Source of the DNA: Tilletia caries
Taxonomy: Eukaryota > Basidiomycota > Exobasidiomycetes > Tilletiales > Tilletiaceae
Length of the DNA: 64,000 bases
Reading direction: 5' to 3'
NCBI GenBank assembly: GCA_032718865.1
Contig: JALUTQ010000019.1
Location: 26,691-90,690, forward strand
A model generated the notes under the pieces. It was not told the DNA's origin and made no database searches. It saw only the letters and a program-made list of their open reading frames with translations. Below are positions 35,450-59,658 of this stretch, one piece after another; position 1 is the stretch's first letter, and each line of letters starts with the position of its first letter. The position numbers and the translations under genes were made by a program.

Positions 35450-38400
35450 ATGAGTCTCCTCCTTGCTCCTTTGTACGTCGTTTTGGTCTGTGGACAGGCC
35501 CCAGATAACTGACTCTGAACTCCTTTTCGCCCGCAGCAACAATGCTATGCGCCTCGGTCAAGGGTGAGCGAGTATTGCAGTAGGAAGAACCTCATAACGC
35601 GTGCTAATCTGGTACTCGTCCTGGACGGTCACAGATTCAACTCGTACACGCAATCAATACTAATCGATGACGCCGTCATCATCGACCCTACTCGCGAGGA
35701 GAATGTGATCGACAACTCGGGCCTGACGGTCAAAATGCTTGCAGAACGAACTGGAACACTGAGCGTGCTGGAACGAATGCCTGGCCTCGTCGAATCTTCT
35801 GTTGGAGCTACCTCGCCCCGTACAGAATCGACGGACACAGCCAACAAGAACAGCACGGAAAAAACGAGGCTCCCTGTTCGCCCGAATGACCCTGCCTCTC
35901 CCAAAGCGAAGCCAGAAGCTCCAGCGACCGAGTCGACCAAGCCTCTGACTGCAGAACAGCGAAGGGAGGAGAGGGACAAGAAGCTTAACTCCGCTGCCGC
36001 TGCGGAGGCGAACGCAATGAGCGTCGGAGAAATGAATGCCAAGTTTGGCCAAAACAGTTCCAGGATCGAAGACCTTCTTGCCAAGAACACCCAATCGGTC
36101 AATGAAACCCAAGGTCACGTCCAGCTGCCTTGGACCGCACAAGAAGCCGAAGGTCCCGGGCAGATCGTCACGTACACCTCCAAGTTCGTAAACAAGCTCA
36201 GCGAAATCACCGACGAGATGTCCATCAGTGGCTCGCTCTCCATCAAATACAACGCCATCGGAGGCTCAGGATCTGGAGCGTTCTTTGATGCCGAGAAATT
36301 CTATGAAAGCGACCTCAGATACCTCGTCTCGGTCAAAGTCGTCAATCAGACGCTCAACTATAAGGATCCCCTAACTTTCAACCCGTTGCGGTCCTGCATG
36401 CGCGATCAGGAGAAGTTTAATCAGACCTTTGGTGATGCTTTCATCTCGGGTTTCCTCGAGGGTGGTGAGTTCAACGCGCTCATCCTCATGAAGGTCCACA
36501 ACAAGAACAAGAAGCGCGACATTCAGGCCGAGGCCAAGGTTGCCCTCACTGCCGGTCCAGTCGAGGTCTCTGCCCAGGGGAACGTCAAGCTGGCAGAGGA
36601 GAACATCGCCAACAACAGCGAGACGAGCGTGTACGTGCGCTGGTGTGGTGGCGGCAACATCAAGCCTTACGATGACGAGTGGAACATCAAGTCCGCAATG
36701 GCTGCCGCGGCGAGGTTTCCTGCATTGGTGGGGCTGTATCCACAGCGTACTTATGCAGTGTTGACGAAGTACGAGAGCCTTCGAAGCTATCTCGTGCTCA
36801 AGCCCGTCAAGCTCTCTCCGCTTCGGTATGAGTTGGCTCAGATGTACACCAACATCCTGCTGGATAGCTACATGGAGTACAAGTCCATGACGAGACGAAT
36901 TTCTACCGACATTGCCGACATCCAGGCCGGACTGAAGGAATTTCAGACGGTCGACATATCATCGCGACCAACGCTGTCTTCAAGTTTGGCTGCGGCCGGC
37001 CTCAACTTCTTTCCCGCTACCTTGACTGGCCTCGACGACGCACGCAAAGCCATTCGCAACCAAATGAACATCATCGTCGGCGAGGTGGATGAGATGACAG
37101 ACCATCCGGAGAAAGGGAGCGATCCGAAGCGCAAGCAGCCTTACGTCGGACCCGTTTCGTTTTCAATTCTACTTCCGGAAGTCGACCTGCGCAACACACG
37201 CAAGCGATCGAACGTAGCTCCTTTGAATATTCAGCGCATCAATACTGTCGATAAGCCCGAGAACGCGCCTATTGACGAGGTCAACGAAGATGCGCCGCCA
37301 CTCTTTGATCCTAACAGCACTTCGATTCGCCCGAGTTCATCTGAACAAAGCAAGCTAGCGGACCTCGAGTGGCAGAGCTATGGCATTGGGACATCATACC
37401 AAGTCAGCCCTCCTGTCGGCGATCAGGACCAAGGAACGCCCTTCTGTACGCTTGACTTTGCGCAGTCCGACGAGTCAATCACAGAGATCACCGCGGTGGT
37501 GGATGCCGAGAACAAGCTCACTTCCATCGTGCTGGGATACAACAATGGTCTCATCTGCACCTTCGGCGCGGCTGTGGATCAGAAGGACCTCGACTCTGCA
37601 CCTCAGACGCACAAGCTGGTCTGTCCCGACGCGCGTGCGCACCGCATCGTGTCTGGCAAAATCCAGGTGCTCACCTACAACGATGCCAATAACGAGCCTA
37701 AGCAGAGGGTTGTTGGACTGGGCCTCAGCATCAGCAAGGATCGCAAGATTGAGACGTACTACAGGCCTGGTTCTTCGGAGGCTGGAACAGTGGCTGAAGT
37801 ACCCTTTGGCGTACCTGTTAGTGATTTCAAGCTCTCTGGGCTGTGGGGTCGCATGCACGAAGATGGTCCAGACGGTGGTATCACCCGACTTGGCTTTATC
37901 TGGGGCTCGGTCGCATTGGTGAGTTCGAGTTCTTGCTCGCTCCCTAACTGCTATGAACGTCGGATGATTGACATTGATCGTGACTACAGAGCGTTGCCAC
38001 TTCAAGTGACCAGTCCGACCGGCCTACAAGTATCACGAGCGTATCTCGCTCCTTTTGGCCCAACACACGCGAGAACAATGTCTTCAACGAGATCAAGTTC
38101 CCTTACCCGCTCCTTGACACGCCTCGACTTATCCTTGCGCCTCATTACCTCAAGTCAGCAGCCAAGAACAAGGAGGAAAAGGACACAGAGAGCATGGAAC
38201 GTATCTTCCTTTCCGTCTCAGCAAAGAAAGAGAAGCTCACCGAGAAGGGATTCGAGCTCGAGGCTCGGACACGATACAGTGAAGATGCTTTCTTCTGCTA
38301 CTGGATGGTCATGCCCGAATTCGAGTCGACACAGATCGAGTGCGGAGAAGCGGACGTAGCCGACATCCAGGGAAAGACCAGAGAGGTGGAGGTCACCTTT

Positions 38401-38886
38401 GGCCGATCCTATCCCGAAGACAGCACTCCCGACATTCGTTGCTGGATCACTGCCATCAATGCTCTACCTTCAAGCGAAGGAGGAACAATTCACGTCAGAG
38501 CTCAGGTCGTGCCCGATTCCTTTACCATGAAAGGCTTCCGACTCGCTGTCGACGTCTTCGGCGGAACCAAGGTTGAGAATATCAAGATCGGCTGGATCGC
38601 GCACACCAAACCAAGCGAAACGAATGCCGACTTTGTCAGCGGAGACTTGCTGGTTGGTGACATGGCCGAGGCCAAGAAGGAGATCAAGCTCGCCTCCACG
38701 CTGAGCGATAAGCCCGTCTCGCAATTTGTTGCCATCAACGAGATCGAGGCCGAGACGAAGACTCTCATCAGCTTTGCGGCGACCTTCTTGCCGGAGACGT
38801 CTAAGGAGGCCGTTCACCTGAACGTCTGTACTTTCGGGCCAAGCCAGGTCAAGAAGCTCGGCCTCATCTGGATCCTGTCGATGTAG
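35450..38886 (+). CDS. Gene A: MACPF-like protein with jacalin-like and H-type-lectin-like domains
   Basis: Exons 35450-35472, 35537-35563, 35635-37918 and 37990-38886 give 1,076 codons. The N-terminus MSLLLAPF/NNAMRLGQG/FNSYTQ is shared with genes B, C and D, followed by an IDDAVIIDP block and a charged linker. FGDAFISGFLEGG begins at residue 282: F-G-D-x-F-x6-G-G, the spacing of the MACPF/CDC signature with Asp for Thr/Ser. Next come WCGGGNIKPYDDEW and FPALVGLYPQRTYAVLTKY, also conserved. A jacalin-like beta-prism region follows (LTSIVLGYNNGLICTFG ... DFKLSGLWGRM ... ITRLGFIW). The last 250 residues contain two H-type-lectin-like repeats (VEVTFGRSYPEDSTPDIRCW ... IKIGWIAHT; a second ends GLIWIL). 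No signal peptide. Function inferred: lectin-targeted, membrane-active protein, cytoplasmic unless released otherwise. Confidence 0.75.
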
Positions 38887-39173: not shown

Positions 39174-39504
39174 TGTCGTAGTTCTAGACGAACAGGTACG
39201 ACTCCTGTTGGCTACTCACCGATGAAGGTGGAAGGCCAGAGGTTGTGCGAAGTCAAGCAGTAAATGAAGATGAAGGTATGAAAGGACAAGTGATGTATTC
39301 GAGGGGGAAAGGACGAGACAACGAGAGTGAGAGTATATGTACTCCAAGGAGACGAACGATAGGGGCTATTGGGAAGTAGATGCTTGTGAAGGAGAGATGA
39401 ATTGTCCGATGGCTCGAATCGAGGAAAAAGAGGTAGGTGCTGAGACTGATGTGGTAGAGAAGGTGAAGCGAAGGGAACGAGCGATCATGTTCCATTTCAT
39501 GACA
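39174..39504 (-). repeat. 3' LTR of the copia element (331 bp)
   Basis: Begins TGTCGTAG and ends CATGACA on the plus strand (TG...CA). By eye it is identical over its whole length to 44558-44888. Confidence 0.95.
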
Positions 39505-39515
39505 CTCCCACCCAT
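39505..39515 (-). other. Polypurine tract of the copia element
   Basis: Minus strand ATGGGTGGGAG directly abuts the 3' LTR, where plus-strand DNA synthesis would be primed. Confidence 0.7.
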
Positions 39516-39533
39516 GATCGACGAAGTGACCGA

Positions 39534-42500
39534 TCAGGTTGAGGTGCTGGGATGATGGATAATGCCGATGGTGTTACGATGCTGATGGAAGGTGATAGGA
39601 GGGAGGGACTTGGTGAACATATCCGATGGATTGTCTCGTGTGTTGATGTACTTGATGTTGATGAAGCCACGCTCTTGTTGCTCCCTGGTAGACAAGTACT
39701 TGCGCTCCATATGGCGGGTAAGACCATTGCTGACTGGGTTCGAGATGATGTGAATTGCAGGCTGGTTGTCGCAGTAGATGACCGATGGTTGTCCTTCGCC
39801 ATCGACGCGGAAGCCAAGGTCCTCGAAGAAGCGGCGAATAGCCATGACTTCACGAGAGGTCTGCCACACAGCGATCAACTCCGCCTGGGCCGTTGAGTCT
39901 GCGACCAGGGTCTGCAGCTTCGATCCCCAAGCCACTGTCGCACCATAAACCGACACACACCACCCCGAAGTCGACTTGGCTGAGTGATCGCCGCCAAAGT
40001 CGGAGTCGGAATAGGCGACGACATCGTCCTGCGAGTGAGCGGCGATGCGAAGCTTCATGTCGATGGTGCCAGCCAGGTACCGAAAAGCGCGTTTCATGCA
40101 GGCAATGTGAATTGGACCAGGGTTTTTTGCGTGCCGTGAAAGGTAGGCAACGAAGTGCATCAAATCCGGCCGCGAAGCCTGAGCGAGCCAATTGAGGTAA
40201 CCGAGCTCCGCCTGAAAGAGTTTCTGCTGGGCCTCTGTCGACTGGCCATCATAGGGAACGAGTCGCTGCTTCGGATCGAGAGGTGTGGGAGCTGGATTGA
40301 GGTCCTTGTACCCCAGACGGTCGAGCGTCGCGCGAATGTAGGATGCCTGAGAGATGAGGAATGATCGACCATCGACGCTGCGCTCGATCTTCATGCCAAG
40401 AAATTGACCGATCGTTCCCTGATCCTTCATCCGAAACCGCTTGGCGAGCTCCGCCTTGAAACCCACAATTTCCTTCTCATCCTTCCCAAACACCAACACA
40501 TCGTCCACATAGACGGCCACCACGATTGCCTCCGTGCCTGAGCCATAAATGAAAATAGCTTGATCGGCGATGGACTGTTGGAAACCCAAGGCGAGGAGAG
40601 CAGAGCGAAGGGTGAAGAACCACTCGCGACCTGACTGCTTCAGGCCGTAGATGGCTCGTATAAGTCGACACGCCAGATGCTCTTGACCAGGGACTTCAAA
40701 GGCGGGGGGGCTGCCTCATGTAGACTGTGTCTTTGAGGAATCCGTAGAGGTAGGCGGTGACTACGTCGAGTTGGTGGACGTGCCAACCGAGGTAGGCGGC
40801 CAGGGCGAGCAAGGTTCGAATTGTCACAAAACGAGTCACCGGCGAGTAAGTCTCGTGAAAGTCGACCCCGGGGACTTGACTAAATCCCTGGGCAACCAAA
40901 CGAGCCTTGTACCTCGCTACACAGCCATCCGTGTCGAGTTTGAGCTTGAAGACCCAACGCGAACCGACTAGATCCCGATCTGCGGGCAGTTCCTCCAATA
41001 CCCATGTGCCCATCTCCGTATGGGATGCGATCTCCTCCTTCATTGCCTCAAGCCACAATCCCCAATCCGTTCTGCGCATAGCATCCTTGAGCGTGTTTGG
41101 TTCCAGCTCGATGCCGTCGGCGGACAACAGCGCACGGAACGCAGACGCAAACGAGTCGTGCATTGAGAGAACAGCCATATTCGCCTGCCGCTGCTCCCGC
41201 CCATCTTGCAGTCGACGAACGTGCAGTCGAGTCTGGTATGAGATGGTGGGCTGAGGGCGAGCACGAGCGTTTGAGCGAGCAGGAGGTTGAGGTTGCTGTT
41301 GTTGTGGAGCTGCAGGAGGAGGAATCTCGGCGCGAGCGGGCGCCACTGGAGCAGGCAAAGGAGCCTCGGAAGCCGCCGGTTCAGGCGCTACTCCCACCGG
41401 TGCTGCTGGGGGGGGGAGGAGGAGGTGCAGGAATCGGCTCGTCACCGTCATCCAGAAGCTCAACTGTTGCTGGTGGGTGAGGTGAGGGCGCAGGAGGACG
41501 AGGGCCAATCACGACGATGCGAGGACGCCTAGCAGCTGAGTGAGGAGCTGGGGGTTGATCGGCGTGAGAGGAGGGAGAATCGAGAGTGCTGAAGTCGTAT
41601 CCCTTGTGCTCGTGGAAGTCGACAAACTTGGTGACCTTGACCTCGCCGGTATCGGGGAAGTGAATCCGATAACCTTTGTGGTAATTGTCGTAACCAATAA
41701 ACACTCCCACCCTTCCCCGAGCCGCAAGGGAATGCGCACGCTCACGATCGCTCAACATGGCGAACGCGAGGCACCCGAAGACGCGAAGATTGCCAAGCTG
41801 AGGCTGCGTCCCGTGCCACAGCTCGTAGGGGGTCTTGCCGTCCAAAGCTGAGCTGGGACACCGATTGCGAATGTATGCCGCCGTGCTGGCAGCCTCTGCC
41901 CAGTACTCTAAGGGAATGTTGCGCCCATGAAGGAGGGGGGGCGCATGACGTTCTTGATGAGGCCGACGTAGCGTTCGGCAACACCGTTCTGTTGAGAGGT
42001 ATAGGCGCATGATTTTTCGTGACGGGCACCAAGCAGAGCTGCTTTGATCGCCGCGTTGTTGAACTCGCCGCCTCCGTCGGTCCGTAGGCACCCGATGGGG
42101 CCTTTGAACGGGACCACTTCATCGCGCCAGGCGATGAACTTCGCGACAAAATCAGACTTGCGCGCGAGGGGGGGATGACCCACACCATCCTGGTGTAGTC
42201 ATCAACGAGAACCGCCAAATACTCCGCTCCCCCCAACGACTTGACGATGACTCGGCCGGTGAGATCGCCGTGCACGAGCTCCAGAGCTCGCGTCGTCTTC
42301 GTCGTGGAGGTCGGGAAGGGGGGGTTCTTTTGATGTTGGTGAGGGAGCACGTCTCGCACCTGCAGATCGTTGACTGATCCGCGCGTCGCAGCCACAACGG
42401 CTCCGGGAGACCAACACTGTTCTGGGCAAGGACCGGGAGCGTCGAGCTACCCGCGTGGCCCAGGCGTTCGTGCCAAAGGCGCCACATCGTCACAAACCGA

Positions 42501-43260
42501 TCCAAACGGTCACCTGCGAGAGGAGGGGCCAGTTCCTCGTTATCAGGTGCACCACTGCGCTCTTCATCGTCGTCTAAGACGAAGAAGGCGGAAACATCCG
42601 TACCAGTCATCACCGTGATGACGTACGCCTGGGACTGCCATGACCAGATCGCACAGACTTTGAAGCTGCGCTGGAATGGGTCCGTAATGGTTGCTTCGAA
42701 GTGTTCATCGAAGTGAACTCGAAGATGGTCTTGATTCAACTTGAACACGGAAATGAGGTTGTACCGTAGTTCTGGAATCAAGAGGACGTCGAACAGCACA
42801 AGTTCACCAGGAACATTGCCATCTTGTCCGACCGTATGTAAAACGACCGTGCCGCGCCCGCGGGCAAGGATTCGTTTGCCGTCAGCCAGGACGACCGCAG
42901 TCGTGGAGGGCTCTATGGCGGCGAAGCAGGAAGCGTTGGGCGTCATGTGTGCGCTGGCGCCCGAGTCGAGGATCCAAGCAGCGCTCGCAGAGGGAGTAGG
43001 GGCGCCCTTCATCAGGGATTGCACCATCAAAAAGGGCGTCCTCATCCTAATACGGGCGAGAAGAGCTGCCCGGGGGGTAGAATTGCTGACCACCGGGAAC
43101 CCAACCCTCGGGAGCGTGCTCGCTGATGCGACTGGCCAGACTGGGAATCTGGTAACCGTATCCCATCGGTGGAACCCCCAAAGCGAGGGTACCATGCGTC
43201 CCAGGGCGAGCAGCGAGAGACGACTCAATGGCGGCGAGGCGAGCATGTACCGCCTCTATA
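39534..43260 (-). pseudogene. Copia pol: protease, integrase, RT, RNase H; frame broken at G/C runs
   Basis: Fragments in order: 43246-42152 (protease DSGASAHMT; GAG-pre-integrase LWHERLGHAG...CRCETC), 42395-42152 and 42183-41908 (integrase VDDYTRMVWV, LRTDGGGEFNN, YTSQQNGVAERYVG), 42091-41381 (integrase C-terminus, Pro-rich linker), 41508-40696 (RT: GSRWVFKLKLDTDG, VDFHETYSPVTRF, HQLDVVTAYLYG), 40589-39534 with upstream open frame (RT core VYVDDVLVF; RNase H AYSDSDFGGD, ADSTAQAELIA). The frames change at C6/G6 43072-43077, G7 42318-42324, G7 42168-42174, G7 41935-41941, G9 41408-41416 and G7 40704-40710. Every catalytic residue I looked for is present, so apart from these runs the polyprotein looks functional. 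Confidence 0.9.
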
Positions 43261-44351
43261 GCGCCGTGCTCCTGCGTCTTTGCCTTTTGCTCTTGAGCCA
43301 CACGACTGTCTGGGTGTGGTGGCTGGCCGTTTTTCTTCGCCTTGCAGTGCTGAATGAGATGACCGACTTTCTTGCAGTGGTAACACGTCGCACCCGTGCG
43401 CGAAGCACCAGCGCCTTTACGACGATTCTTCGCCGCGGACTGCTGTGAAGTCTCAGCGGCAGAGGACAACGCCTGAGAGACGATGAGCGCCATAGCACCG
43501 GCGGGAGGCGCTTGTCCCGTCACTGTCGCTGCCGCTATATGAAGCGACTCTTCAGCGGCAAAGGTTGCGATGACGTCCTCAAAGGTGAGAACCTCGGGTC
43601 TCCAGCTGGCCGACAAGGAGGCGCGTATAGCGTCGAAGCGAGACCCCAGGAAAACACGCAGAACGATCCCGACCTTGCGAACCTGAGACACGGGCTCCCC
43701 TCCGGACATGAACACTTGATTGAAGAGGAGTTCAAGGTCCTGAGAGACCTGAGTCACGGTCTTGTCTCCGAGAGTGTAGGTCGTGAGTTCGTGTTCCGCC
43801 GTCTGCATAGTCGCCACATCTTGTCCAGCGTACTTCTTGGAGAGGGCAAGCCAGATGCCTTGTCCGTCGCTTCCGTCGGCACCGACGAATTTCGTTACGT
43901 CGCTCTTTGTCTTCTCGTCAAGCGATTGAATGAGGAGACTGCCGGCCGTGGTCAAGTCCGAAGAACGATACGCCGTTGCATCGTCAACGGAGGCGAGTTC
44001 ATCGGCTTTGTCTGGGTTGGCGAAGATGCGCCGATAGCAGTCGACGGAGGTCGCAGGGTGGCCATGAATGAGGTACCAAAGTCGACCGTCATTGTGAGGC
44101 TGAAGGAGGGCGGCCATATCCGTGCGCCACGAGATCCAGTTGCGCTTTCCCTCAAGGAGAGCAATCGTCGCCTTGGTGCTTGCACCTTTAGGCTTGGCAG
44201 GGGAACGCTGAGCACGCACAAGGCGAGCCAGCACAGCGTCGTACGTCAAGGAGGATCCCAAAATCCGGATGCCGATGCCATCTTGAGGCCCGAAAATCGG
44301 CGGGGGAAGGAACGCTTTGTCTTGGCCTTGAGTGCCAGCGGTGGTAGACAT
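43047..44351 (-). CDS. Copia Gag
   Basis: 434 codons starting MSTTAGTQGQDKAFLPPP at 44351, about 200 nt inside the 5' LTR. The central region matches the copia gag domain (NWISWRTDMAALLQPHNDG, TLGDKTVTQVSQDLELLFNQ). A CCHC zinc knuckle follows (CYHCKKVGHLIQHC, CX2CX4HX4C). The frame ends in a Pro/Gly/Ser tail at the G6 run that begins the pol frame, so Gag and Pol may be one polyprotein in the true sequence, as is usual for copia. Confidence 0.9.
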   Translation of the reverse strand: MSTTAGTQGQDKAFLPPPIFGPQDGIGIRILGSSLTYDAVLARLVRAQRSPAKPKGASTKATIALLEGKRNWISWRTDMAALLQPHNDGRLWYLIHGHPATSVDCYRRIFANPDKADELASVDDATAYRSSDLTTAGSLLIQSLDEKTKSDVTKFVGADGSDGQGIWLALSKKYAGQDVATMQTAEHELTTYTLGDKTVTQVSQDLELLFNQVFMSGGEPVSQVRKVGIVLRVFLGSRFDAIRASLSASWRPEVLTFEDVIATFAAEESLHIAAATVTGQAPPAGAMALIVSQALSSAAETSQQSAAKNRRKGAGASRTGATCYHCKKVGHLIQHCKAKKNGQPPHPDSRVAQEQKAKTQEHGAIEAVHARLAAIESSLAARPGTHGTLALGVPPMGYGYQIPSLASRISEHAPEGWVPGGQQFYPPGSSSRPY

Positions 44352-44542
44352 AATGTTGACTGTCTACATTTGTTAAGGAGAGTGAACCACCAGGGTTGTA
44401 GTCGTTAGAGGCGTGAGGTATCGTGAAGACGTGAAGGGTGATCAGCCCAAGAGAGAAGGCGCCAGAAAAAGAGGAAGAGGGTACGATAAAAAAGGGAGTA
44501 ACTTGTAAGTACTAAGTTGCTATGCCCTCGCACAGTCGGAGC

Positions 44543-44557
44543 ATTGGGCTCATAACC
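44543..44557 (-). other. Primer-binding site, half-tRNA initiator-Met type
   Basis: Minus strand GGTTATGAGCCCAAT directly downstream of the 5' LTR is complementary to the anticodon arm of eukaryotic initiator tRNA-Met (GGGCTCATAACC), the half-tRNA priming known for Drosophila copia and related elements rather than priming by the tRNA 3' end. Confidence 0.75.
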
Positions 44558-44888
44558 TGTCGTAGTTCTAGACGAACAGGTACGACTCCTGTTGGCTACT
44601 CACCGATGAAGGTGGAAGGCCAGAGGTTGTGCGAAGTCAAGCAGTAAATGAAGATGAAGGTATGAAAGGACAAGTGATGTATTCGAGGGGGAAAGGACGA
44701 GACAACGAGAGTGAGAGTATATGTACTCCAAGGAGACGAACGATAGGGGCTATTGGGAAGTAGATGCTTGTGAAGGAGAGATGAATTGTCCGATGGCTCG
44801 AATCGAGGAAAAAGAGGTAGGTGCTGAGACTGATGTGGTAGAGAAGGTGAAGCGAAGGGAACGAGCGATCATGTTCCATTTCATGACA
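44558..44888 (-). repeat. 5' LTR of the copia element (331 bp)
   Basis: Appears identical to 39174-39504. It should hold the element's promoter for minus-strand transcription. Short ORFs in it recur at the same places in the other LTR and are not genes. Confidence 0.95.
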
Positions 44889-44893: not shown

Positions 44894-45131
44894 CAGGCCG
44901 ATGACGATGATCTCCAAAGCATCCCGCTTTGCTTCAGGCAAAGCTCCAACGATTATTTCCTTTGAACCTTGACCTAGAGCTACGGACCGCAGCCCCTTCG
45001 TCTTTCGTCCATCCCAGCGGCTGGAGACTGAATCCTTGCGCATCGACGGGATGCATGCGGAATTCGCTGCGAGCAACAAGCAGATTAGCAAGGAAGCTCA
45101 GCTGAAGCACAAAAGTGTTGAGACCGGAGAC

Positions 45132-48100
45132 CTACTTTTTGTAGTGATAAAAGAGTGTGAACCATGTGCAGTCCTGTTGGGCGACCTGGACGTTCTTGTC
45201 ATCACTCCCTTCGGCTGCGACTTTGAGATACCACTTTCGGTTGCCATCCACGAGGTAAAAGCTGAATGCAGTACCAGTAGCATTGGGCTCGACTCTGAAC
45301 TGGTTTGAGATATGTACGGACGAAGCGAAGTCAGTATGTCGTAGAAATGATATGAAGGTCACAAAAAAGAAGTCCAGCTTATGCTTACTAGTTGTGCCTT
45401 TTCTCCAGCCATGCCGCGTATTCGTGCTAGATGTTCATCTCCGTCTAGGTCACAGTGCATGAATTTGCCGCTGAAGGTGTGCTTCAGCCGGAAGCCTTCA
45501 TTTGACAATGCGCTGATTATACTCTCCGCTCTCCCCTTGGCCTCCTTGACAGCGCTCAGCTGCTGTTCGAGAGCTTGGCGTGTCTTTTCGGTAGAAGTTG
45601 TGAGGGAGACCAGCTTGCCCTCGAGGTCATTGATCTTTTGTTCTGCCTCCTTGATCTTTCTCTCGGCTGCCGTCTTGTCGTCGCTGGTCTTCTGGGCCGC
45701 GGCGTCGCTGACCTCGCTCTGCTTCCGTAGCGCCGTGACAAGTTGGTTGATGTTGGCAAGCTTCGTTTCGCTCTCTTTAAGGTTACGCGCCAGGATTTCC
45801 TCGGTGGAAACCCTCTCTTCGAGGGCGGCATCGGCCTCAAATGCTGCAGTTTTCTTGGCGTCATCAGGTGCTGTCTGATCCACAGCGTTCTGGTTGGCCC
45901 AGACGATGCCAAGACGGAAGATGCCCGGATTGATGCCCTTCTCCGAAGACCATCCCCAGAACCCGCTCACGTAGCCGCGATCCAGGGGGGGCTCCCATGT
46001 CACCGATCGCACGTTGGAGAACGCACGTTTTCCGATGAAGCGTCTGCCGAAACCAGCTCGTCTGACGTTGGGTTCATGAGCGATCAAGCTCTCACCACGA
46101 TTCGTGACAAATTTGATGGACAGGACGAACTCCGGCGATTTGATGACAGCCTCCGTGCCGACGGTGATGATGACTGACGTGATACGCTCGTCCGGGGCCA
46201 AATCCAGAGACTCGCTCTCGGGGTCAACAACGCCGCGCTTCCACGACAGACCGTTGGTGTATTTGCACGAAAGACCTGAGATCACCCCTTCGGTCACCGT
46301 GGCTGTGACCTTTCGGAGAAGGAAAGAAGGCTGAATGAAGTCGAGGGCGGTGAAGAGTGTGCCTGGCACCGGATTGCTCAGCTCGTTGCCCATCGGCGGT
46401 GTAAGTCGGAGCGAGTTCTCGACACCCTCATCCCGAGCTGCGAGGAACATCTCGATGGCGTTGTTCTCTTGCCTCAGAAGTTTAATCGTCTTTCCGCTAG
46501 AGGTGACTGTGGACGCCGCCTCTTTGTTGTCATCAGCGCCGGAAGCATTCGAAGCATTGCTGACCGCAGCCCCGATTGGCTTCTTGACGATGCACATCCG
46601 ATGGGCTACATCCGAGGACGAATCGTTTCCGGCCTCGTCGCCGAACATCTTCTCGCCGGTGAGAGGAGCTGTACGCTTGCTGGTACGAAAGGCCGACTCA
46701 ACCATAGGAAGGAGCGTCTCGAACGCAAAGAAAGGCAGGAACTTCTCGCGTGGGTTGTCGAGCACCTGACTGGGATCCTTGGTGATCTCGTCGACCCGTT
46801 CGATGATCAGATTCATCTGATCACGCACAGCCTGACGAGCATCGTCAAGACCGTCGAGGGTGGACGGGAAGAAGCCGATCCTCGCCTTCTTCTCGGCATC
46901 AGTGAGCGTCTCGAGAGTCCGATGATCTTCGGCGTCGCTGAACTGCTGGCTTTGAGCTTTCTTGCGTTCTGCCTCGCCTTCGACCTTCTTGAACTTGAGG
47001 GTTCCGCTCTGTACCTCGCTGATCTGTGTCGTCAGCCGACCGTAAAGAGCTTTCAGGCTCATGAAGAGGTCAAGTAACTCCTCGCTATATAGGGCCGCAT
47101 TCTCGTAATCGCAGGGCGAAAGATCCTTCGGCTTCAGGGCTTGATAACTGCGCAAGTTATCGTATTTCGTCAGAATGGCGTAAGTTCGACCGGGTGAAGT
47201 TGCAACATGGTCAGGGAAGCGCGTGGCAGCTCGAGCGAGAGACTCGATGGTCCAAGCCTCTTCCGGAGGCTTGATAACGCCTCCACCAATCCAGCTGACC
47301 TGCACCGTCGTCTCCGTGTTGAGATCGAGATTTGCTTTGGCCTTCGCGAAGGCACCCTTGGCTGAGATATCGAGCGATTCCTTGCCCAACGCAATCGAGC
47401 CTTCTGCCTTGATGTCGGTCGACTTGGCCTTGTTGAGAATCTTCATGCTGATCAACGCGTTGAGTTCGCCACCTTCGATGAAACCTGAAATGAAAGCATC
47501 TCCGAAAACTCGGCGGAACTCCTCTGCCCCCACGTTCTCTATGTTGTTGAATTCCAGCGCATCCTTGAAGTTGATTGACTGGTTCACGACTTTGACCTGC
47601 AGGAGAGAAGATCGAAGGGTGGGTCAGATGAGCTGCAACGCTTCTCGCCTCCTCCCTACTGTAGCTCACAGAGATATAGTAGTTCATGTCGCTCGACTTG
47701 AACTTATCCGTGTCGATGAAGGAGCCTCGGCCAGAACCGCCGCATGAGCTTTTCTTGATGGAAAGACCGGCACTGACGCCCATATCTGATGTGATATCCG
47801 AGAGTTTGTCGACAAATCGACTCTGGTAGATTACCGTCTGGCTGACGCCGGTCGAGTTTTGAATATCGAAGATCTGAGTTTTCTGACCGTCGGTGTTCGG
47901 CGTCGTATGTGTGGATTTAGGCATGAGAAACTTCTTGTGCATCTTTGCCATATCCTCGAGACTGAGAGTGACCTTGAACTGGTTGGCAGCTTCCAGCATC
48001 TCCGGGGCGCGCTCGCGACGCTGGATGGCGCGTTTGACTTCGTCCTGCTTCCTCTTGAGTTTAAGAGCTGCAACTTTAGCGGCCTTCTGCTTGGTCGCCT

Positions 48101-50358: not shown

Positions 50359-53300
50359 ATGTCGCTGCTTCTGGCACCTTTGTGAGTGCACTGTCTGCTC
50401 TTGAAGCTCGTCCGTCGCAAGATATGGCCACTGACTACAGGCAGGAACTACTGCCCGTTATAACACCCTCAGTCACAATGGTATGCGTCTCGGTCAAGGG
50501 TGAGCCGAAGTTCTTGTGAATGTGAAGCACGAAAGCTACGCACGGAGACTAACCAGTCTTCGACTCGCAGCTTCAACTCCTTCACTCAGATGACCTGTGT
50601 CGACAACGCAGTCGTGATGGATCCCGAGCGTGCGGATACAGTCATCAATAATGAAGGCGTGACGATGCGGATTCTGGCGCAGAAGATGAAGAAGGCAAGC
50701 GTTTGGCGGCAGATGAAGGAATATGTGAACGACAAAGAGCTTGCCATTGGAAATACCGAGCCCGACGCAGGCGAACATCTCTCTACCGATGGTACCGGAA
50801 GTGCGTCCGACGAGCCGGAGGACGAGGAGGAAGAGGCGAAGGACGGCATTGCCCAGAAACAGCTGGACCGCGAACGGTCCCAGAAGAAGGAGAACCTGAG
50901 ACAGCTGGCCCTTAAAAAACAGGCGGACGACCTTAGCGACCCTGCACTCGGATCCCGGGGAAACCCTGCGTCCAAAGGCAAGGCGGACATTCTGACCGAA
51001 GAACAGCTCGACGAGGAACTGAATAGTGCGGCTAAGATCAAGGCAGCGGCTGACAAGAAGCTCGCCAAGGATCGTGAGGAAGATCTCGAAAAAGGCAGGG
51101 CACAGGCCATGGACACCCCCGACCTAAGGCAGCAGTTGGTGGAGAAGGATCGACAGCGCAGCGAAAAATTCAACAGTGGTGGTACGGGCATGGGCACGAA
51201 TACGGGCAAGCGACTGGCATGGTCGATGCAGAAGTCGGTCGGCACGAGTCAGATCGTGAACTACACGTCGCGCTTCGTCGACAAGCTCAGCGAGATCAGC
51301 GAGGACATGTCCGGATCGGCAGCCTTGAGCATCAAGGCTGGTTCTTTTGGAGGCTCCGGTAGTGGCGCTTTTATCAATACGGACAAGTTTTACTCATCGG
51401 ATATCAAGTTCTACTTGTCGGTTAGTACTTGGCCACCCAATTTCATTATGGGGAATCTGATCTGACACCTTTCCTCATCTTGTTCATTAACAGGTCAAAG
51501 TAATCAATCAGTCGATCAACTTCAAGGACTACCTCGAGTATAACCCTATTCGATCTGTCAGCGAGGCCAACGCGGATCGATTTAACACCGTTTTTGGAGA
51601 CTGTTTCGTGAGCGGCTTCCTCGAAGGCGGCGAGCTCAATGCGGTCGTCCTCATCAAGGTTCTCAACGATGCGAAGAAGAAGGACATCATGGCTGAGGCT
51701 CAGGTCGCCCTGACCAAGGGCATCGAAATTGACGGCATGGGTAACATTGCCCTTGCCATGCAGAACATCCAAATGAACACGGAGATTTCGATCAACGTCC
51801 GGTGGTGTGGAGGAGCCTCGATCAAGAGCTACGACGAACAATGGACGATCGAGTCCCTGCTTGCGGCGGCAAATCGATTCCCTTACCTTGCCTCGCAGTT
51901 CCCGCAGCGTACTTATGCGATCCTCACGAAGTATGAAAGCCTGCGGTCTTTCGTCAAATTGAGGCCCGCGACGGTTTCTCCGCTGAAGTACGAAAACGCA
52001 GCACTATACGCGAATATGTTAATGGTGAGTCTCACTCCTCCCTCTTTAATACACGCAGCCAAAAAAGCATGGCTGGCTCCGTCAGAAAGAACTGACCGTG
52101 AAGAGGGCACCGAAACTTACATTGCCTTGTTTTTTTTCACCGTAAGGACGCCTTCCTCGAGTACAAGACGTTGGCAAAGCGTGTTGCGTCCGACATTCGA
52201 GCTGTGCAAGCTGGGGTCAAGCGATTCAAGGCCGAGGTGCCCGTTGCGAGCACCGACGATCAATTTCTCTCCGTATCGCTCCAGAAGTCCAAACTGTCCA
52301 AGTTTTCAGCCAACCTTGAAGGACTCGACCTCGCCCGCTGCGAGATCCGCAAGCAGATGAACGGCATCGTCCGCGAAATTGATGCGATCACCAAGGATCC
52401 GGCTGTTGCGACTAAACAGCGAGGAACAATCTTCGTCGGGCCGGCCTCGCTGCAGACACTGATCCCGCCAGTCGAATACAAGGTCCGCAAGATCCGCAGC
52501 AACCCTCTATCTGGCGAACGCATCAATAAAGAAGTCGAGGACTTGAACAAGGCCATTCAAGCCAAGAATGATGATCCTGAAGTCCACCTCTTTGACCAGT
52601 CTCAAACGACGTTGCCCCTCTCAGAGATGGAGCTGATCAAGGTGGCCGACCTTGAGCGCGACAACCCGGAGCTGGCTGAGGTGACCCGCGTCACCCCACC
52701 GGTCGGAAGTCTCTCCACGGGCACCAAGTTCTGCACCATCGACCTTGGCCTACAGGACCCGATCATCACCGAGATCAAAGCTGGGCAGCAGGCTGGTGTG
52801 CTACGAGCACTCTCGGTCACATACTCCAATGGTCTGAGTGCCAGCTTTGGCGATGACATCGACCACTACTCAGTCAATCAAGGAGACGAGATTGGCGAGC
52901 AGGACAAGTTCCTGCGCACGCTCAGCGACCTCAGCGCCTCGGAGATGATTACCGCCGCCTCCGTTCAAGTCGATGCTGCCGACGACGAGTTGACGATCAG
53001 CGTGGTCGGCGTCAAATTTACCACCAATAAGGGTCGCAAGCTCACCGTCTTGTCCACAGTTGAAGGTATCCAGGGCCACAGCAAGACGCACAGCTTTGAG
53101 AGACCGATCACGGACGCCTACATCTCTGGGTTCTGGGGCAGAGAACGTTCTTTTGAGGATGCTAGTAGCGCCGAGGCCAGGAGTGAGGACGCCAAGATTG
53201 ACAAGGTCGAGGCTCAGGCACAGAAAGCCAAGCCCGTCAAGGGCAGTCGAATTACCAGGCTTGGGTTTGTTTGGACGCAAGCTGTTGTGGTAAGTCTTTT

Positions 53301-54219
53301 CATGGCAGAACGGAAATCTTCTTAGCTCGGACGAGGAGTTCTGACCCTCCTTGTTTCATTGTCTGCTGTTTCGTAGAAGGACACCCTTTTCGACGACGAA
53401 TCGCCAGTGGAATGCCAGACTTCTGAAAAGCTTCTGAGCAGTTCTCACGGCATTGCGGAATTCGGGCGCAAGTATCCTGAGATCCCGCAGCTGATCTGGG
53501 GTTTACGGACTCTGGAGATCGGGGGAAGTGCGGATTCGACACTGACAGCGACGAAGAAAGTAGAGCTCGAGCGCATCGGCTGCACCCTGCAGCCGAACAG
53601 TTGCACACCTGGGGCACAGTGGATGGTCCTTCCCGAGCTCGAGCACATCAATATCCAATGCGGCGAAGTCAAGATCAGCACGGACAGCAAAGAGAGCATC
53701 GAGAACATCCCCTTCGAGCTTCCGTTCAATGAAGGCAAGGCCCCGCAAGTCATCTGCTGGATTGTAGATTTCGAAAACGTCGGGAACACCTGCGACATAA
53801 AGGTTGGTGTCAACGACGAGAAGAAAACCACGGCCACATCCTTCTATCTGAAGGCGACCAACAACGCCGGTTCCTTCGAGACATCTTCAGAGGAAAATAA
53901 TACAGTAACGTACAAGGAGGTCACCGTTGGCTGGCTGGCCCACGACAAGATCATTTCTCCAACCGAGTCGGTCTTCCGCACCGGCAACATCGCCACGTCC
54001 ATCGGATCAAAGGGCAAAGAAGTGCATACGATCACGTACGAGACACCCTTCTCAAGCAAGCCGACGAAGCACTTCTATGCACTGTCCGCCATCAAAACGG
54101 AGGGTAGCGCCGCGTCCTGGAAGGTTGCGACGAAGGAGAGCACGGCGTTGAGCCTCAAGGTCGATATCGAGGCACTCGCTGGCTCCACCTACAGTGGAGT
54201 CTGGATCTCTTCTTTGTAA
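50359..54219 (+). CDS. Gene C: MACPF-like protein with jacalin-like and paired H-type-lectin-like domains
   Basis: Exons 50359-50381, 50473-50499, 50571-51420, 51494-52024, 52147-53289 and 53377-54219 give 1,138 codons without a stop. The N-terminus MSLLLAPF/HNGMRLGQG/FNSFTQ is shared with A, B and D. A strongly charged linker (Glu/Lys/Gln, about residues 90-230) is probably helical. The MACPF-like motif FGDCFVSGFLEGG begins at residue 334, followed by VRWCGGASIKSYDEQW and FPQRTYAILTKYESLRSF. The jacalin-like region has LRALSVTYSNGLSASFG ... DAYISGFWGRE ... ITRLGFVW. The C-terminus contains two H-type-lectin-like repeats (FELPFNEGKAPQVICWIV ... VTVGWLAHD; YETPFSSKPTKHFYALSAI ... SGVWISSL). 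Closest in layout to gene A, with two extra introns. No signal peptide or membrane span. Confidence 0.75.
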
Positions 54220-54543: not shown

Positions 54544-57500
54544 CTACGCCCAGATGGGGAGCAGCCGTGAAAGACTGGTGTCTGTCTCGAACCCGAAGAA
54601 GCCCTTGAGACCGACCATGCCCTGAAATCCATTGATGACCCTGGCACCATCAAGACCAGAAGATGACCGAGCACCCGAGGCAGCGTCGAGCGAAAGTGTC
54701 CGTTGCTTGCTGGTCGTGATCGCAATGCCAGATGGCATCGGTGTGTCATTGTTCGACGGGATCTGGATGGACCGAATCGTCTCGTCCTTTCCCAGCTTTA
54801 CGTCCAGGCAGGTATGCGTATTTGACGACTCCAGATCAATATCGGCACCATGTACCAGGCCCACTTTGCCATACCAGATCCGTACCGAGACCAGTACGGC
54901 CTTGTCATTGCTCCGTGAGAAGACGAATGCAATCCGCGTGGGGAAGTCCGTCTTGTTTTGCTTGATTGCTGTCAGAAGTTCGTAATCGTTGAACATCGTC
55001 CCGGCAGACGGTCTAGACGTGCCGAGGCACGGACCGAAGCGAAGACCGCGGTTCTTCAGCTTGGCCACTGGGCTCAGTAGAGCAGCTCGTTCGTCGGGTA
55101 ACAGGTCGGACTCAAATTCTTTGTCCACGAGGAGTGGAGCGTGCAGCAGCTGTTGAATGATGACAGCAGGATGTGAGTGTCTAAGCCATGTATGATGCTA
55201 TGTGCTGAACGATACGTACGCCAACGAGAGACCCAGTCGCTGTTGCAAAGCGTGTGACCCTTTGATACCAGAACAATGAGAGGTGAGCCTAAGAAGCTGT
55301 CGGTCACTGTCAAACAAGTGGTCACATCTACGTACTCTGTTCCAGACAGCTTCGGAGTGGACCACACAAAACCGAGACGATGAATGCCCGGTGTGCCTCC
55401 CATCTCGTTGCTGAGGCCGTAAAATCCGGTCAAGACTGCCTTCGGCAAGGGAGCTTCAAAGGCAAATTCTTCCAGATTCGAAAAGAGACGGCCATCTAGG
55501 TACCGACACCTGAATCCATATCGAAGCTGCTTGCTGGCAGCGGCGTGTAGCGTCCGACCTTTGTTCGTAAAGAATTTGAGCGCCGTGACGGTACCCTTGG
55601 TCTTGCCGTCCTCAGGCTTGCCATACTCGATACTGCCGCTCAGTATCATCTCGTCCTCTGCAAATTTGGCGAGCTGGAAGGGCTCTTGCTCCTCATCGAT
55701 CCATCCGCGGCGCCATTGGAGACCATTTCTGTAGGAGATGGAAATACTTGCGATGGCGCCTTGAGCAACGCCAATCGAGAGGTTTGCGATGCCCGCGTAG
55801 GTCTTGATGAAGTCAAACCCGAAGAACGGCTCGCCATCCTCCTTCGAGCCGACAGGCCGCGTCAGGCGCATGGTCGCTGCGGGGCTCTTCTGAGTTTTTG
55901 CGCCGGGTGCAGCGTTGCCTTTGCCGTCTGAGAGTCTCTTGAGAAACTTTGCCTCCTCAATCACGGTCAGACCGAGTGAGGATGGCTCGGACTCGCATAA
56001 GCTGGCCAAAAAGCCTTCTCGGGCGGCATCCTGTCCACCTCCGCCGTTCTTCGCCTCCGGCTCGGGTCCGATCCGACGTCCAGTCAGTGGAGGTCGAGAC
56101 GCCTCGCCGGTGCGAACAGACTCGATGATGGGCAGCTTTTCCCAGAACTTGACGGGACTCGTAAATTTCTCCTGGTAGTCTTTGCTCTGGGGATCCGTGA
56201 CTATATCGGGTCGTTTTGTGATCTGCTCGACGCGTTCAACGATGCTGCTGAGCTCGGGCCTGATTGCGCGGCAGGCTTCTTCAAGACCGTCGATGGAGGC
56301 CTCATAGCCGCCCTCCTCGACTTGCTGATTGGGCCTAAAGCGTTTGGTGCCCTGCTGAATCTCGCGGATATCGCCACTGATGTTGTTGTAAAGTGCCTTG
56401 AAGACCATGAAATAATCCAACAGCTCGTCTGTGTATAGGGCAACGTTGTCGTAGTTCATTTTCCCAAGCTTAGCCGGCTTCAAGGCGAGATAACTGCGAA
56501 GCTGGTCATATTTCTGCAGCACTGCGTATGTGCGCATCGGCGAGCGGGCGACATTTTGCGGGAAGCGACTGGCTACTTTGATGATCGATTCGATGGTCCA
56601 GGGCTCATTCGGATGCTTGATGTTGCCGCCGCCAGACCAGCTCGCGGTGATTGTAGTCTCGGTGTTGAGGTTGATATTCGCCTTTGCGAGGGAAAAGGAA
56701 GCGGAGGCTTCTATGTCTAGGGCGCCACTGGAAAAAGCCACCTTGGCCGCGGCCGCAATCTCGGTGAGCTTGGCTTTGTTGAGGACCTTCATGGAAACGA
56801 GCGCTTGAAACTCGCCTCCTTCGAGGAAGCCCTGAATGTAGGAATCGCCGTAGACCTGAAGAAATTGCTCATCATCCACAACGCCGTCCGGGAGCGGGAC
56901 AAACTCCAGGGGATCTTTGAAGTTGATGCTTTGGTTTGTGACCTTGCAGCTGATGTAGTAGTTGAGGTCACTGTTCAAGAACTTGTCACTGTCGATGAAC
57001 GATCCTCGGCCGGAGCCGGCAATGGTACCGGCCTTGATGGACAGCGAGGCCGATATACCCATGTCCTTGGTGATGCTGCTGAGATCGTTGACGAAGCGGC
57101 TGGTGTACACGACGGTCTGACTGGGCCCTCCGATGTTGCTGTTCTTCCAAGTCCGAGTGCTATTTTCGATGATGCTGGATCCGGCATGTTCGCGGTATGG
57201 CGGTGGGGCAGGAGCAGGATTGTTCACGAGCGCTGAGGACTTTCCTTCAAGTGGAGCTCTCCGCCGCATGGCCCTGATTTTCTCCTGGCGCTCGGGGGAC
57301 AGAGTGAGAAACTTGTCGTTGGTCAACTCGTCCATGGCGGTTTTTGCTTCATCAAGACGATCGGTGTCCATCAGCACTTCGGTTTCCTTGGTCCACAGAC
57401 TTGGATACGAGTTGGACAAAGCGATGGTTCGCATCGTCTGCCCAAGATTGTTCAAGAAGTTCTCTTCTCGGTGAGGAGAGACAACAACAGCCGAATCGAC

Positions 57501-57731
57501 GCAAATGCTTTGCGTGTATGAGTTGAAGCTGTTGGTGAAAGAGAAGATATCAGCACTACTAGCCTGTCCAGACGCTGCCTTGGAAGAAGACCGACCCTTG
57601 ACCAAGGCGCATAGAATTGTTGCTGAAGACGGCATCATTATGGAGGGCCACATCAGTAACCAGTCCTGAGAGCGTGCAGCGTGCTGAGGCTGGATCGTAG
57701 TGACTCACTAAGGTGCGAGGAGGAGCGACAT
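54544..57731 (-). CDS. Gene D: MACPF-like protein with two jacalin-like domains
   Basis: Exon 1 is 57731-57709 and exon 2 is 57622-57596 (its donor reads GTCGGT, weaker than in the paralogues). Exon 3 begins at 57528 and stays open to about 55345. One or two introns follow between about 55345 and 55130, exact joins unresolved, and the last exon ends at 54544. The N-terminus MSLLLAPY/NNSMRLGQG/FNSYTQ matches the family. The MACPF-like motif YGDSYIQGFLEGG begins at about residue 243, followed by ASWSGGGNIKHPNEPW and SPMRTYAVLQKYDQLRSY. Jacalin-like domain 1: IASISISYRNGLQWRRG ... VLTGFYGLSNE ... IHRLGFVW. The final exon carries another (TIRSIQIPSNNDTP ... GLKGFFGFETDTSLSRLLPI). There is no H-type-lectin or coiled-coil tail, so the C-terminal binding module differs from A, B and C. 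Confidence 0.7.
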
Positions 57732-58437
57732 TGTGACGGATCGGCTGGCCGTGCTGGTCGATGCCGGAGAGAACACAGAGAGAAGTAGAATGACCTCGGA
57801 CGGACGACGAACAGCTGTTGATGCTTGACGCTCCTTGAGCCAAGTGAATAGTGAAGACCAGAGCGACACGGCGATTCGCCGACCATGCAGAACTTGTACA
57901 AAAAGCCATGAAAAGTAATGGAAACACAAGCTCAATAGACTATAGACTAAACCTAAATGAAATAACGAACAAACAAACGAAGCACACGCCACCGAATCGA
58001 AGCGATGAATGCACCATGTACAATGAACGCCACCAAAGTCTATAATGTGCATGCTGGATGCAGACAATCGACACTACACTACATTATCATATGTCCCTAT
58101 ATAGAAAAGAGTCTTTCTATAGTACAGTATTATGAACGTTATTTATTCGTCTCCCAGTCCCAGTCTGGCTGGTGTCCCGAGAACTATATTCACTGCTGCT
58201 GGCCGCTCGGCCGTCGGCGCTCACCGCTGTACGGCCCCAGTCCACAGTCTACACTCCACAGCGGTGACATATCCCGAAGCACATACCTCTCTCCACTCCC
58301 TTCTCCCGTTGCTGACATCATCATTCTTCGAAGTTCGCCCGCCGAGCAAGCTCTCAACTCGATGCCAACCGGCCCATCCCACATCATTGCATTTTGTTCC
58401 CCGTCCAGCCCGGCTTGCCATTCGAGAATTCAGCAGC
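57732..58437. promoter_or_regulatory. Divergent intergenic region between genes D and E
   Basis: 706 bp between divergent starts; likely bidirectional promoter. AT-rich in the middle (about 57900-58130). An in-frame extension of gene E back to an ATG at 58132 falls here but is low in family character, so the shorter start is preferred. Confidence 0.4.
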
Positions 58438-59658
58438 ATGCCTGTAGCTTCCGGTGGACCCGCCCTCATTGAGTCCAAGGATCTCTTTCCTGGAGCCGCT
58501 CTGGACACCTTCCTCGAGTCCAACAAGCCCACCCTTGCCTCACTCGCTCAGCAGAAGCTGCCCATCGTTGTCCCATGGCATGCCGAACAGACCATATATC
58601 CCGGCCAGCTCTTTCACTCGAGCTTGCATACCTCATCTGATCCGTGGTCAAAGACCTCGGCCTTCATCACTCTCGAGCAAGAGCAAGAGCAAGGCCGCAC
58701 GCCAAGCAGAATCGTTTATCTCAGCACTGACGGAGGTACCTCGGGCTCGTGCAAGTCCACCAAGACGCAGTCGACGGTGGCAAAGGAGGACCACGAATCG
58801 TATGGGTTCACGGCCACTCTGAATCTCGGGTTCTGTTCCGTCTCAGGATCTCTCAAATACGACCGCCATCTATCCCAAAACAATGATGTGAGTACTCATC
58901 ACACCTCGAAATGCCATCAAACAGTACCTGATCCCAAGGCTTCTCACCAACAGGACATCAAGACCTCTGTCCGCGCGAGCTACCGATGCGGCACCGTGCT
59001 CCTTCGTCAACCTCCCGAGCTTTCCCAAGAAGCTCAGATCGAGCTCAAATACGGCGGCGGCATCGACGCCTTCGAGCAAAAGTACGGCGACTATTATCTC
59101 TTTGGCTACAACCTCGGCGGCGACAACTCCATGATGGTCTCGACCAACTCCATGTCGATGTCCCTCGCCGAACGCAAGACTCTCAGCATCAAACTCGAGA
59201 CCTTCTTATTTGATATCGAGTTCACCCAGCACTTCGACTCCGCAGAGTCGTCCGCATCAGCCTCGCTCCGCGTTACGGGGTATGACACTTTAACCGCGTC
59301 CATCCTGGACGACGAGAAAAGTTGGGCCGCCTCGAGCACGGCCGAGTTCGATCGTATGCAGCGCGAAACGGCCCGCATGCGAAACTTGGGAAGCATGCTG
59401 CCCACACGCGTTGAGCAGAAAGCAGCTGAGCTTGGCTTACTACTAGGACCTGCCGGCATGGTGCAACAGCGGCTGAAGTCGGACCTCGCCAAAAGGAACA
59501 ATACGCCATTTGCGCCGATGGCCGCGCTCGAGAAGACAGTGGACAAGGAGCTGTGTGATCGGCTGATCAAGAGCTGTCTTGTAGTTGAGCTTGTGCTCAT
59601 GCCGGTGCGGTCTTTACGTCAGGTGCGGTACTGGATGACAGAAGACGATATCATTTGA
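58438..59658 (+). CDS. Gene E: short MACPF-like protein without lectin domains
   Basis: Start MPVASGGPALIESKD at 58438; exon 1 is 58438-58887 and exon 2 is 58954-59658, giving 384 codons. The 66-nt intron (GTGAGT...CAACAG) happens to be in frame, so intron retention would insert 22 residues. YGDYYLFGYNLGG begins at residue 194 and fits the MACPF spacing (aromatic-G-D-x-aromatic-x6-G-G). Around it are KTSVRASYRCGTVLLRQPPE and TLSIKLETFLFDIEFTQHFD, predicted beta strands. The MSLLLAP/MRLGQG N-terminus, jacalin-like and H-type-lectin-like parts of A-D are all absent, and the C-terminus is helical. It may be a distant relative acting as a partner or regulator of the large proteins, or an independent MACPF-like protein. 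Confidence 0.65.
   Translation: MPVASGGPALIESKDLFPGAALDTFLESNKPTLASLAQQKLPIVVPWHAEQTIYPGQLFHSSLHTSSDPWSKTSAFITLEQEQEQGRTPSRIVYLSTDGGTSGSCKSTKTQSTVAKEDHESYGFTATLNLGFCSVSGSLKYDRHLSQNNDVSTHHTSKCHQTVPDPKASHQQDIKTSVRASYRCGTVLLRQPPELSQEAQIELKYGGGIDAFEQKYGDYYLFGYNLGGDNSMMVSTNSMSMSLAERKTLSIKLETFLFDIEFTQHFDSAESSASASLRVTGYDTLTASILDDEKSWAASSTAEFDRMQRETARMRNLGSMLPTRVEQKAAELGLLLGPAGMVQQRLKSDLAKRNNTPFAPMAALEKTVDKELCDRLIKSCLVVELVLMPVRSLRQVRYWMTEDDII

What the first reader, a model, noticed from the sequence alone, without database searches (positions are those of the whole stretch)
35450..59658. Alternating five-gene cluster of MACPF-like, lectin-tailed proteins
Genes A-E lie in strict + - + - + order and all carry aromatic-G-D-x-aromatic-x6-G-G, the spacing of the MACPF/CDC signature with Asp in place of Thr/Ser. 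Seen: the motifs at residues 282, 422, 334, about 243 and 194, and shared flanking blocks (RTYA[IV]LTKY, W-x-GGG-x-IK). Known: MACPF proteins form pores and often use lectin-like domains for targeting. Inferred: a clustered set of intracellular, lectin-guided pore formers or membrane binders. No signal peptides, so release would need an unconventional route or cell damage, as for a defence or allorecognition system.
Basis: partly seen in the sequence, partly recalled or inferred. Interest (0 to 1): 0.9.

Follow-up and report, generated by a model that had tools for sequence, protein, structure and literature searches.

The report
Subtelomeric cluster of lectin-tailed perforin-like proteins
A wheat-bunt fungus carries, near a chromosome end, five neighbouring genes for perforin-type (hole-punching) proteins, four of them with sugar-binding-type tails; the set is kept together in related fungi, exists in a second copy, and comes in unusually divergent versions, as genes for attack, defence or self-recognition often do, although nobody has tested what these do.

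Summary
Genes A-E lie at 35450-59658 in + - + - + order and each carries [F/Y]GDx[F/Y]x6GG. A, B, C and D each match, by sequence alone, one solved structure, the "Aegerolysin-L pore" 9uj0 (A 2e-7, B 4e-13, C 3e-10, D 5e-12), which has the same Asp in its signature. E matches MACPF/CDC by fold only. A-D have jacalin-like domains plus H-type (A, C), weak trefoil-like (B) or second jacalin-type (D) ends; E has no tail. "MACPF-like" is supported; "lectin-tailed" is wrong for E. Pore formation and defence are inferred.

Beyond the finding: a second five-gene set lies on another contig (47-65% identity over the main stretches); both sets sit near TTAGGG arrays; members share contigs in Tilletia, Ceraceosorus and Acaromyces; and T. 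controversa holds versions of A, C and E only 67, 63 and 78% identical, although aligned regions of these genomes are 98.7-99.6% identical (PMC9172201). A complete Copia element with identical LTRs lies between A and B. Best reading: a co-evolving multi-component set of fungal MACPF proteins acting at membranes, possibly in non-self response. New variant of a known kind.

The parts
35450..38886 (+). Gene A, 1076 aa, 4 exons: N-terminal block, variable linker, MACPF core with FGDAFISGFLEGG at residue 282, jacalin-like region (no Pfam match of its own), H-type lectin tail
   Evidence: main exon to 9uj0, E 2.1e-7; H_lectin 30.9 bits, cut-off 24
39174..44888 (-). Ty1/Copia element between A and B: identical 331-bp LTRs at 39174-39504 and 44558-44888, target duplication GAAAG; described only
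   Evidence: RVT_2 in two frames, Pol_BBD in a third
44934..49087 (-). Gene B, 1225 aa, 7 exons: MACPF core with FGDAFISGFIEGG at 422, jacalin-like domain, coiled coil, beta-trefoil-like tail (weak)
   Evidence: Jacalin 25 bits, cut-off 22; RicinB_lectin_2 18.2 bits, below cut-off 25.6; 9uj0, E 3.5e-13
50359..54219 (+). Gene C, 1138 aa, 6 exons: MACPF core with FGDCFVSGFLEGG at 334, jacalin-like domain, H-type lectin tail (borderline)
   Evidence: Jacalin 26.5, H_lectin 24.2 bits, cut-off 24; 9uj0, E 2.7e-10; 99.9% to P0151, labelled T. caries
54544..57731 (-). Gene D, 950 aa: MACPF core with YGDSYIQGFLEGG at 243, jacalin domain, probable second jacalin-type domain
58438..59658 (+). Gene E, 384 aa, 2 exons: MACPF/CDC-fold protein without tail, YGDYYLFGYNLGG at 194
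   Evidence: (P0121 identical)
62151..62306 (+). TTAGGG arrays (5 and 18 units) about 2.5 kb beyond E, with 1.7 kb of further DNA before the contig end: the cluster is subtelomeric

Best explanation
A-E are five soluble, probably cytoplasmic MACPF/CDC-fold proteins (A-D clear paralogues, E distant) that work as one multi-component set. Proposed mechanism: the C-terminal jacalin, H-type and trefoil-like domains of A-D dock the proteins on glycans or lipids that become reachable when a membrane is breached, fused or foreign; the MACPF cores (A-D, with tail-less E as an extra subunit) assemble side by side into a hetero-oligomeric arc or ring; the two hairpin regions then insert. SHOWN: gene structures, homology of A-D to a solved MACPF pore, MACPF-type fold match of E, lectin-type domains, a second set, subtelomeric site, divergent versions. 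INFERRED: linkage in other species (from contig lengths and locus numbers), co-assembly, membrane insertion, carbohydrate binding, a role in response to damage, invaders or non-self.
For: A, B, C, D each find 9uj0 (Aegerolysin-L pore; one entry, 36 chains of one sequence) as their only convincing PDB match; the family profile aligns its N-terminal block and core, and 9uj0 carries YGDRFIADFIKGG. GGXnW, a second conserved MACPF motif (PMC5483515, passages), is present in A-D. E: Foldseek best PlyB pore, E 2.6e-8, prob 1.00; the 41 matches with E<=0.001 are MACPF, CDC or gasdermin-type pore proteins. Joint function: own A, B, C and D fall into separate clades; A, B and D reach beyond Tilletia. 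Members share a longest contig of equal length: C. guamensis A, D, E; C. bombacis A, E (consecutive locus numbers); Acaromyces A, B, D; T. maclaganii A, B, C-like, E; T. indica C, D (consecutive numbers); T. horrida A', C', D'. The own genome holds one of each of the five in each of two sets. Immunity-type evolution: T. controversa versions of A, C and E at 67, 63 and 78% against 98.7-99.6% identity of aligned regions (PMC9172201).
Confidence: 0.6

Rival explanations
1. Non-lytic MACPF scaffold: the proteins bind internal membranes or glycans without making holes, for example in spores or wounded hyphae, as some MACPF proteins in animals are thought to work without lysis.
For: No signal peptide seen by eye; long charged linkers between N-terminal block and core; first-hairpin amphipathicity not significant; PMC5483515 (title and passages) treats perforin-like proteins with alternative mechanisms.
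Against: The nearest solved relative is a pore; the second hairpin alternates significantly in B and D.
Confidence: 0.22
2. Weapons released by an unconventional route or by lysis against insects, nematodes, bacteria or other fungi, like pleurotolysin B and its aegerolysin partner, the lectin-type tails replacing the aegerolysin.
For: Fungal MACPF proteins without recognised signal sequence occur in secretomes (PMC9505663, passages); PlyB is E's best Foldseek match; relatives occur in lichen fungi and Trichoderma (names; lifestyles recalled).
Against: No aegerolysin found in the genome (the control rang nowhere, so inconclusive); nothing shows release; relatives in fungi of many lifestyles speak against a wheat-specific effector.
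Confidence: 0.2
3. A subtelomeric family kept by duplication, with redundant members and no joint function; linkage reflects tandem origin only.
For: Both sets lie near TTAGGG arrays; a relic of A's end, 93.5% identical over 123 codons, lies near the second set; gene order differs between the sets.
Against: Each set holds one of each of the five types, with exon-long open frames in the second set (no full models built there); A, B and D types are shared with Acaromyces or Ceraceosorus on shared contigs.
Confidence: 0.15

Closest known systems
Aegerolysin-L pore (PDB 9uj0)
   Same: Significant sequence match of A, B, C, D; same YGDxF signature with Asp; N-terminal block also aligns
   Different: 488 aa against about 950-1225 aa; no such lectin-type tail known to me; its organism and paper were not found
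Pleurotolysin B (PlyB) and beauveriolysin B (BlyB), fungal MACPF-like proteins
   Same: Fungal MACPF signature Y/F-G-x2-F/Y-x6-G-G; BlyB likewise is reported with no Pfam domain (PMC8624791, PMC9505663, passages); PlyB is E's best fold match
   Different: They are gene neighbours or partners of an aegerolysin; here no aegerolysin was found (inconclusive), targeting-type domains are fused, and several paralogues are clustered
Complement membrane attack complex (C6-C9)
   Same: A set of diverged MACPF proteins (recalled); MACPF/CDC fold, rows
   Different: Secreted animal plasma proteins with other accessory domains; hetero-oligomerisation here is only inferred
Fungal allorecognition loci (het-B with lectin-fold domain; RCD-1 gasdermin-type pore)
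   Same: Divergent versions within a species complex; lectin-fold or pore-forming parts (PMC10890737, search listing only; RCD-1 pore 8jyz)
   Different: No incompatibility reaction known here; no HET domain or partner gene identified

Membership tests
MACPF/CDC superfamily | Signature Y/F-G-x2-F/Y-x6-G-G (form given in PMC9505663) | tested here: met
   A-E, residues 282, 422, 334, 243, 194
MACPF/CDC superfamily | Stricter form with T/S and H after the first G (PMC5483515) | tested here: not met
   Asp and no His in A-E. Not taken as excluding: the solved Aegerolysin-L pore has the same Asp, and fungal members are described with the looser form
MACPF/CDC superfamily | GGXnW motif (PMC5483515) | tested here: met
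   Present in A-D; not found in E with the pattern used
MACPF/CDC superfamily | Sequence homology to a solved MACPF pore | tested here: met
   A 2.1e-7, B 3.5e-13, C 2.7e-10, D 5.4e-12 to 9uj0; E no such match
MACPF/CDC superfamily | MACPF/CDC fold in E | tested here: met
MACPF/CDC superfamily | Bent sheet and two helical clusters in the core of A-D | tested here: inconclusive
   D model: long strand 246-265, helices 268-283 and 292-305; residues 176-190 under pLDDT 50; 9uj0 at rank 17; core not folded alone; A, B, C not folded
MACPF/CDC superfamily | Pfam MACPF model PF01823 | tested here: not met
   No match in the genome (1 of 14 controls rang); best E 0.14 in 1 of 15 E homologues. BlyB is reported without a Pfam domain too
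MACPF/CDC superfamily | Membrane pore formation | not testable with these tools
   needs protein work
Jacalin-type beta-prism | Fold and Pfam PF01419 | tested here: met
Jacalin-type sugar-binding lectin | C-terminal GxxxD ligand loop (recalled) | tested here: not met
   the last strand reads IxRLG in A-D, no Asp; so called jacalin-type fold, not a proven lectin
H-type lectin PF09458 | Profile match over the curated cut-off | tested here: met
   A 30.9 bits; C 24.2 bits, borderline (last-exon frame); cut-off 24
Aegerolysin/MACPF two-component cytolysin | Aegerolysin partner gene | tested here: inconclusive
   PF06355 no match in the genome, but no control genome rang
Fungal allorecognition locus | Highly divergent alleles at one locus within a species | tested here: inconclusive
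   Divergent versions exist; the A and E versions are absent from this genome; their locus is unknown
Fungal allorecognition locus | Incompatibility reaction | not testable with these tools
   needs strains

The most novel reading that the evidence does not exclude
A complement-like fungal system: five co-encoded MACPF proteins build one hetero-oligomeric, lectin-guided pore inside the cell, and the whole set segregates as deeply diverged subtelomeric haplotypes, so that it discriminates self from non-self or invaders at fusion or injury.
Probability: 0.18. Interest if true: 0.88.

Novelty: new variant of a known kind. Interest (0 to 1): 0.62.

Why it matters
The best-described fungal MACPF proteins are single partners of aegerolysins. 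A five-member set with fused lectin-type tails, present twice in one genome and in strongly diverged versions in an otherwise near-uniform species complex, would give fungi a multi-component perforin system and a concrete candidate for non-self response in smuts, where such loci are hardly known (my recollection). It also gives the solved Aegerolysin-L pore a large natural family that Pfam's MACPF model did not find here.

Tried and rejected
Haplotype explanation for the two sets (dikaryotic assembly): not supported; family PF00562 (second-largest RNA polymerase subunits) gives three loci, the haploid number as I recall it, and a gene from the window's left part has one copy. The flank 60200-63800 matches C5 and C33 and, among the 33 matches listed, not C6.

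A third A-E set in the own genome: none found; searches with D, an E version and an A version hit C14 and C6 only. The tool scores only its best candidates.

Pfam and NCBIfam for the core: nothing relevant. E against the PDB by sequence: nothing relevant. The match 1939-2664 to C6 is a dispersed repeat, dropped. Trees used 120 of the 196 D hits and chosen relatives; 5 of 128 sequences were dropped from the first for coverage or span, 1 of 54 from the second.

Literature: searches listed no paper on a lectin-tailed MACPF gene cluster in fungi; each listed only its best rows and only open-licence papers are held, so this is not proof of absence. Seen as passages: PMC9505663, PMC8624791, PMC5483515; PMC9172201: passages, abstract, outline. 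Search listing only: PMC10890737.

The odds did not need changing.
Full report
WHERE IT IS. The window is the last 64,000 bases of a 90,690-base contig (C14) of a 38.1-Mb fungal genome. Proteins of the window are 98.6-100% identical to deposited proteins labelled Tilletia controversa (P0121 for E, P0001 for D) or T. caries (P0151 for C), so the source is a wheat bunt fungus of that complex. The assembly looks haploid: PF00562 gives three loci.

THE GENES. Spliced models (intron borders) give A, B, C, D and E of 1076, 1225, 1138, 950 and 384 residues in + - + - + order. A-D share a 23-nt first exon and a 27-nt second exon, a start MSLLLAP[FY][NH]NxMRLGQGFNS[YF], a variable linker, the core with the signature, and a jacalin-like region. 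After that they differ: A and, borderline, C match H-type lectin, B ends in a coiled coil and a weak trefoil-like match (the Acaromyces relative P0018 carries the trefoil family PF14200), D probably in a second jacalin-type domain (rows of the multi-domain Parkia lectin reach model residue 962; overall rmsd 17-19, so domain placement is not matched). E is a bare core.

A SET OF FIVE. Among 123 of 128 core sequences and 53 of 54 in a focused tree, own genes and relatives fall into D, B and A/C groups: D clade support 1.0, B of smuts 0.994, A with A' 1.0, C with C' 0.995 (FastTree local supports, midpoint root). In the focused tree A (with Acaromyces and Ceraceosorus) has 0.998, B of smuts 1.0, D 1.0, but the wider C group only 0.48; C was seen only in Tilletia. 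Acaromyces has A, B and D members with longest contig 447,625, Ceraceosorus guamensis A, D and E with 363,282, T. maclaganii B, C-like, A and E with 1,102,916, T. horrida A', D' and C' with 217,268 and B', C', E' with 160,461. C. bombacis A and E (CBOM_04877/04878) and T. indica D and C (g4003/g4004) have consecutive locus numbers. Sharing a contig is inferred from equal length and species, not read from the DNA. Two Naganishia species have a B-side and an A/C-side member two locus numbers apart (B-side placement 0.956, 0.734). This is what a co-functioning set predicts, though tandem duplication explains part of it.

A SECOND SET, NEAR ANOTHER CHROMOSOME END. On contig C6, 17-38 kb, lie B'(-), C'(+), A'(+), D'(-), E'(+), with 58, 47-53, 65, 60 and 58% identity to their counterparts over the main stretches and 39-47% in the tails of C', D' and A', in exon-long open frames; I built no full models there. 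Each second-set gene groups with a T. horrida gene (supports 0.999 D', 1.0 B', 1.0 A', 0.988 C', 0.993 E'), so the two sets look older than the split of these species. TTAGGG arrays stand at window 62151-62306, 2.5 kb beyond E and 1.7 kb before the contig end, and, in the opposite sense, at C6 9932-12171, about 5 kb before B'. The places listed for such arrays (a first part of 348) lie within about 22 kb of a contig start or at the highest coordinates seen on that contig. At C6 43.7-44.7 kb a relic carries the last 123 codons of A (93.5% identical) followed directly by sequence matching the end of B: the arrangement without the Copia element.

DIVERGENT VERSIONS. A search with A found no near-identical deposited protein among the 120 listed of 277; the best is labelled T. 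controversa, at 67% (P0136). T. controversa also has C at 63% (P0148) and E at 78% (P0122), while near-identical C and E exist under the labels T. caries (P0151) and T. controversa (P0121). P0136 and P0122 report the same longest contig, 54,267 bases. The A and E versions are not in the present genome; C was not searched that way, but D's search found no further locus. Across this complex, one-to-one non-repetitive regions are 98.7-99.6% identical in DNA (PMC9172201, passages). A protein divergence of 22-37% is therefore far outside the background. Alleles under balancing selection, introgression, or an extra subtelomeric locus present in some strains would all give this; I could not read the flanks of the other contig. 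No version of D between 61 and 99% from this complex was listed (120 of 196), which an all-or-none haplotype would predict unless D is missing or misannotated there: this counts against the simplest allelic picture.

HOW IT MIGHT WORK. Cytoplasmic proteins with lectin-type tails could meet their ligands only when compartments break, cells fuse or invaders enter. I propose docking by tails, side-by-side assembly of unlike cores and insertion of hairpins. Against it: hairpin amphipathicity beats shuffles only in B and D for the second hairpin and nowhere for the first; the usual sugar-binding Asp of jacalins is absent (motif recalled); no activity data exist. I put 0.85 on MACPF membership of A-D, about 0.75 for E, 0.55 on membrane insertion, and 0.35 on a non-self or immunity role; these are my judgements.

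VERDICT. It is a new variant of a known kind: fungal MACPF proteins, here as a duplicated, subtelomeric five-gene set with fused lectin-type tails, linked relatives in other smuts, and strongly diverged versions.

Noticed in passing
window 39174-44888: Complete Ty1/Copia element between A and B with identical 331-bp LTRs and target duplication GAAAG: a very recent insertion; the relic on C6 (43.7-44.7 kb) shows the same junction without it.
   Followed up: yes
window 60200-62306: The segment right of E (weak ORC2 match, below cut-off) has an 86-87% copy inside C5 near 938 kb; the match ends at about 62152, where the TTAGGG array starts, as if a broken end had been capped; beyond the array, 62303-63800 matches C33 at 97%.
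   Followed up: partly
window 1939-2664: Dispersed repeat of about 730 bases with many copies over the genome, the long ones at 91-99% identity.
   Followed up: partly
window 24640-30920: Gypsy-type retroelement pieces (RNase H, integrase; a weak zinc knuckle).
   Followed up: no
window 11006-13192: Open frame of 729 aa with a reverse-transcriptase match (PF00078, 37 bits) and no other domain listed; might be a stand-alone reverse transcriptase, not examined further.
   Followed up: no
L028, L029 (C6:8001-28000): Two CCCTAA arrays 2 kb apart at C6 9932-9979 and 12106-12171, with about 10 kb of sequence outside them.
   Followed up: no
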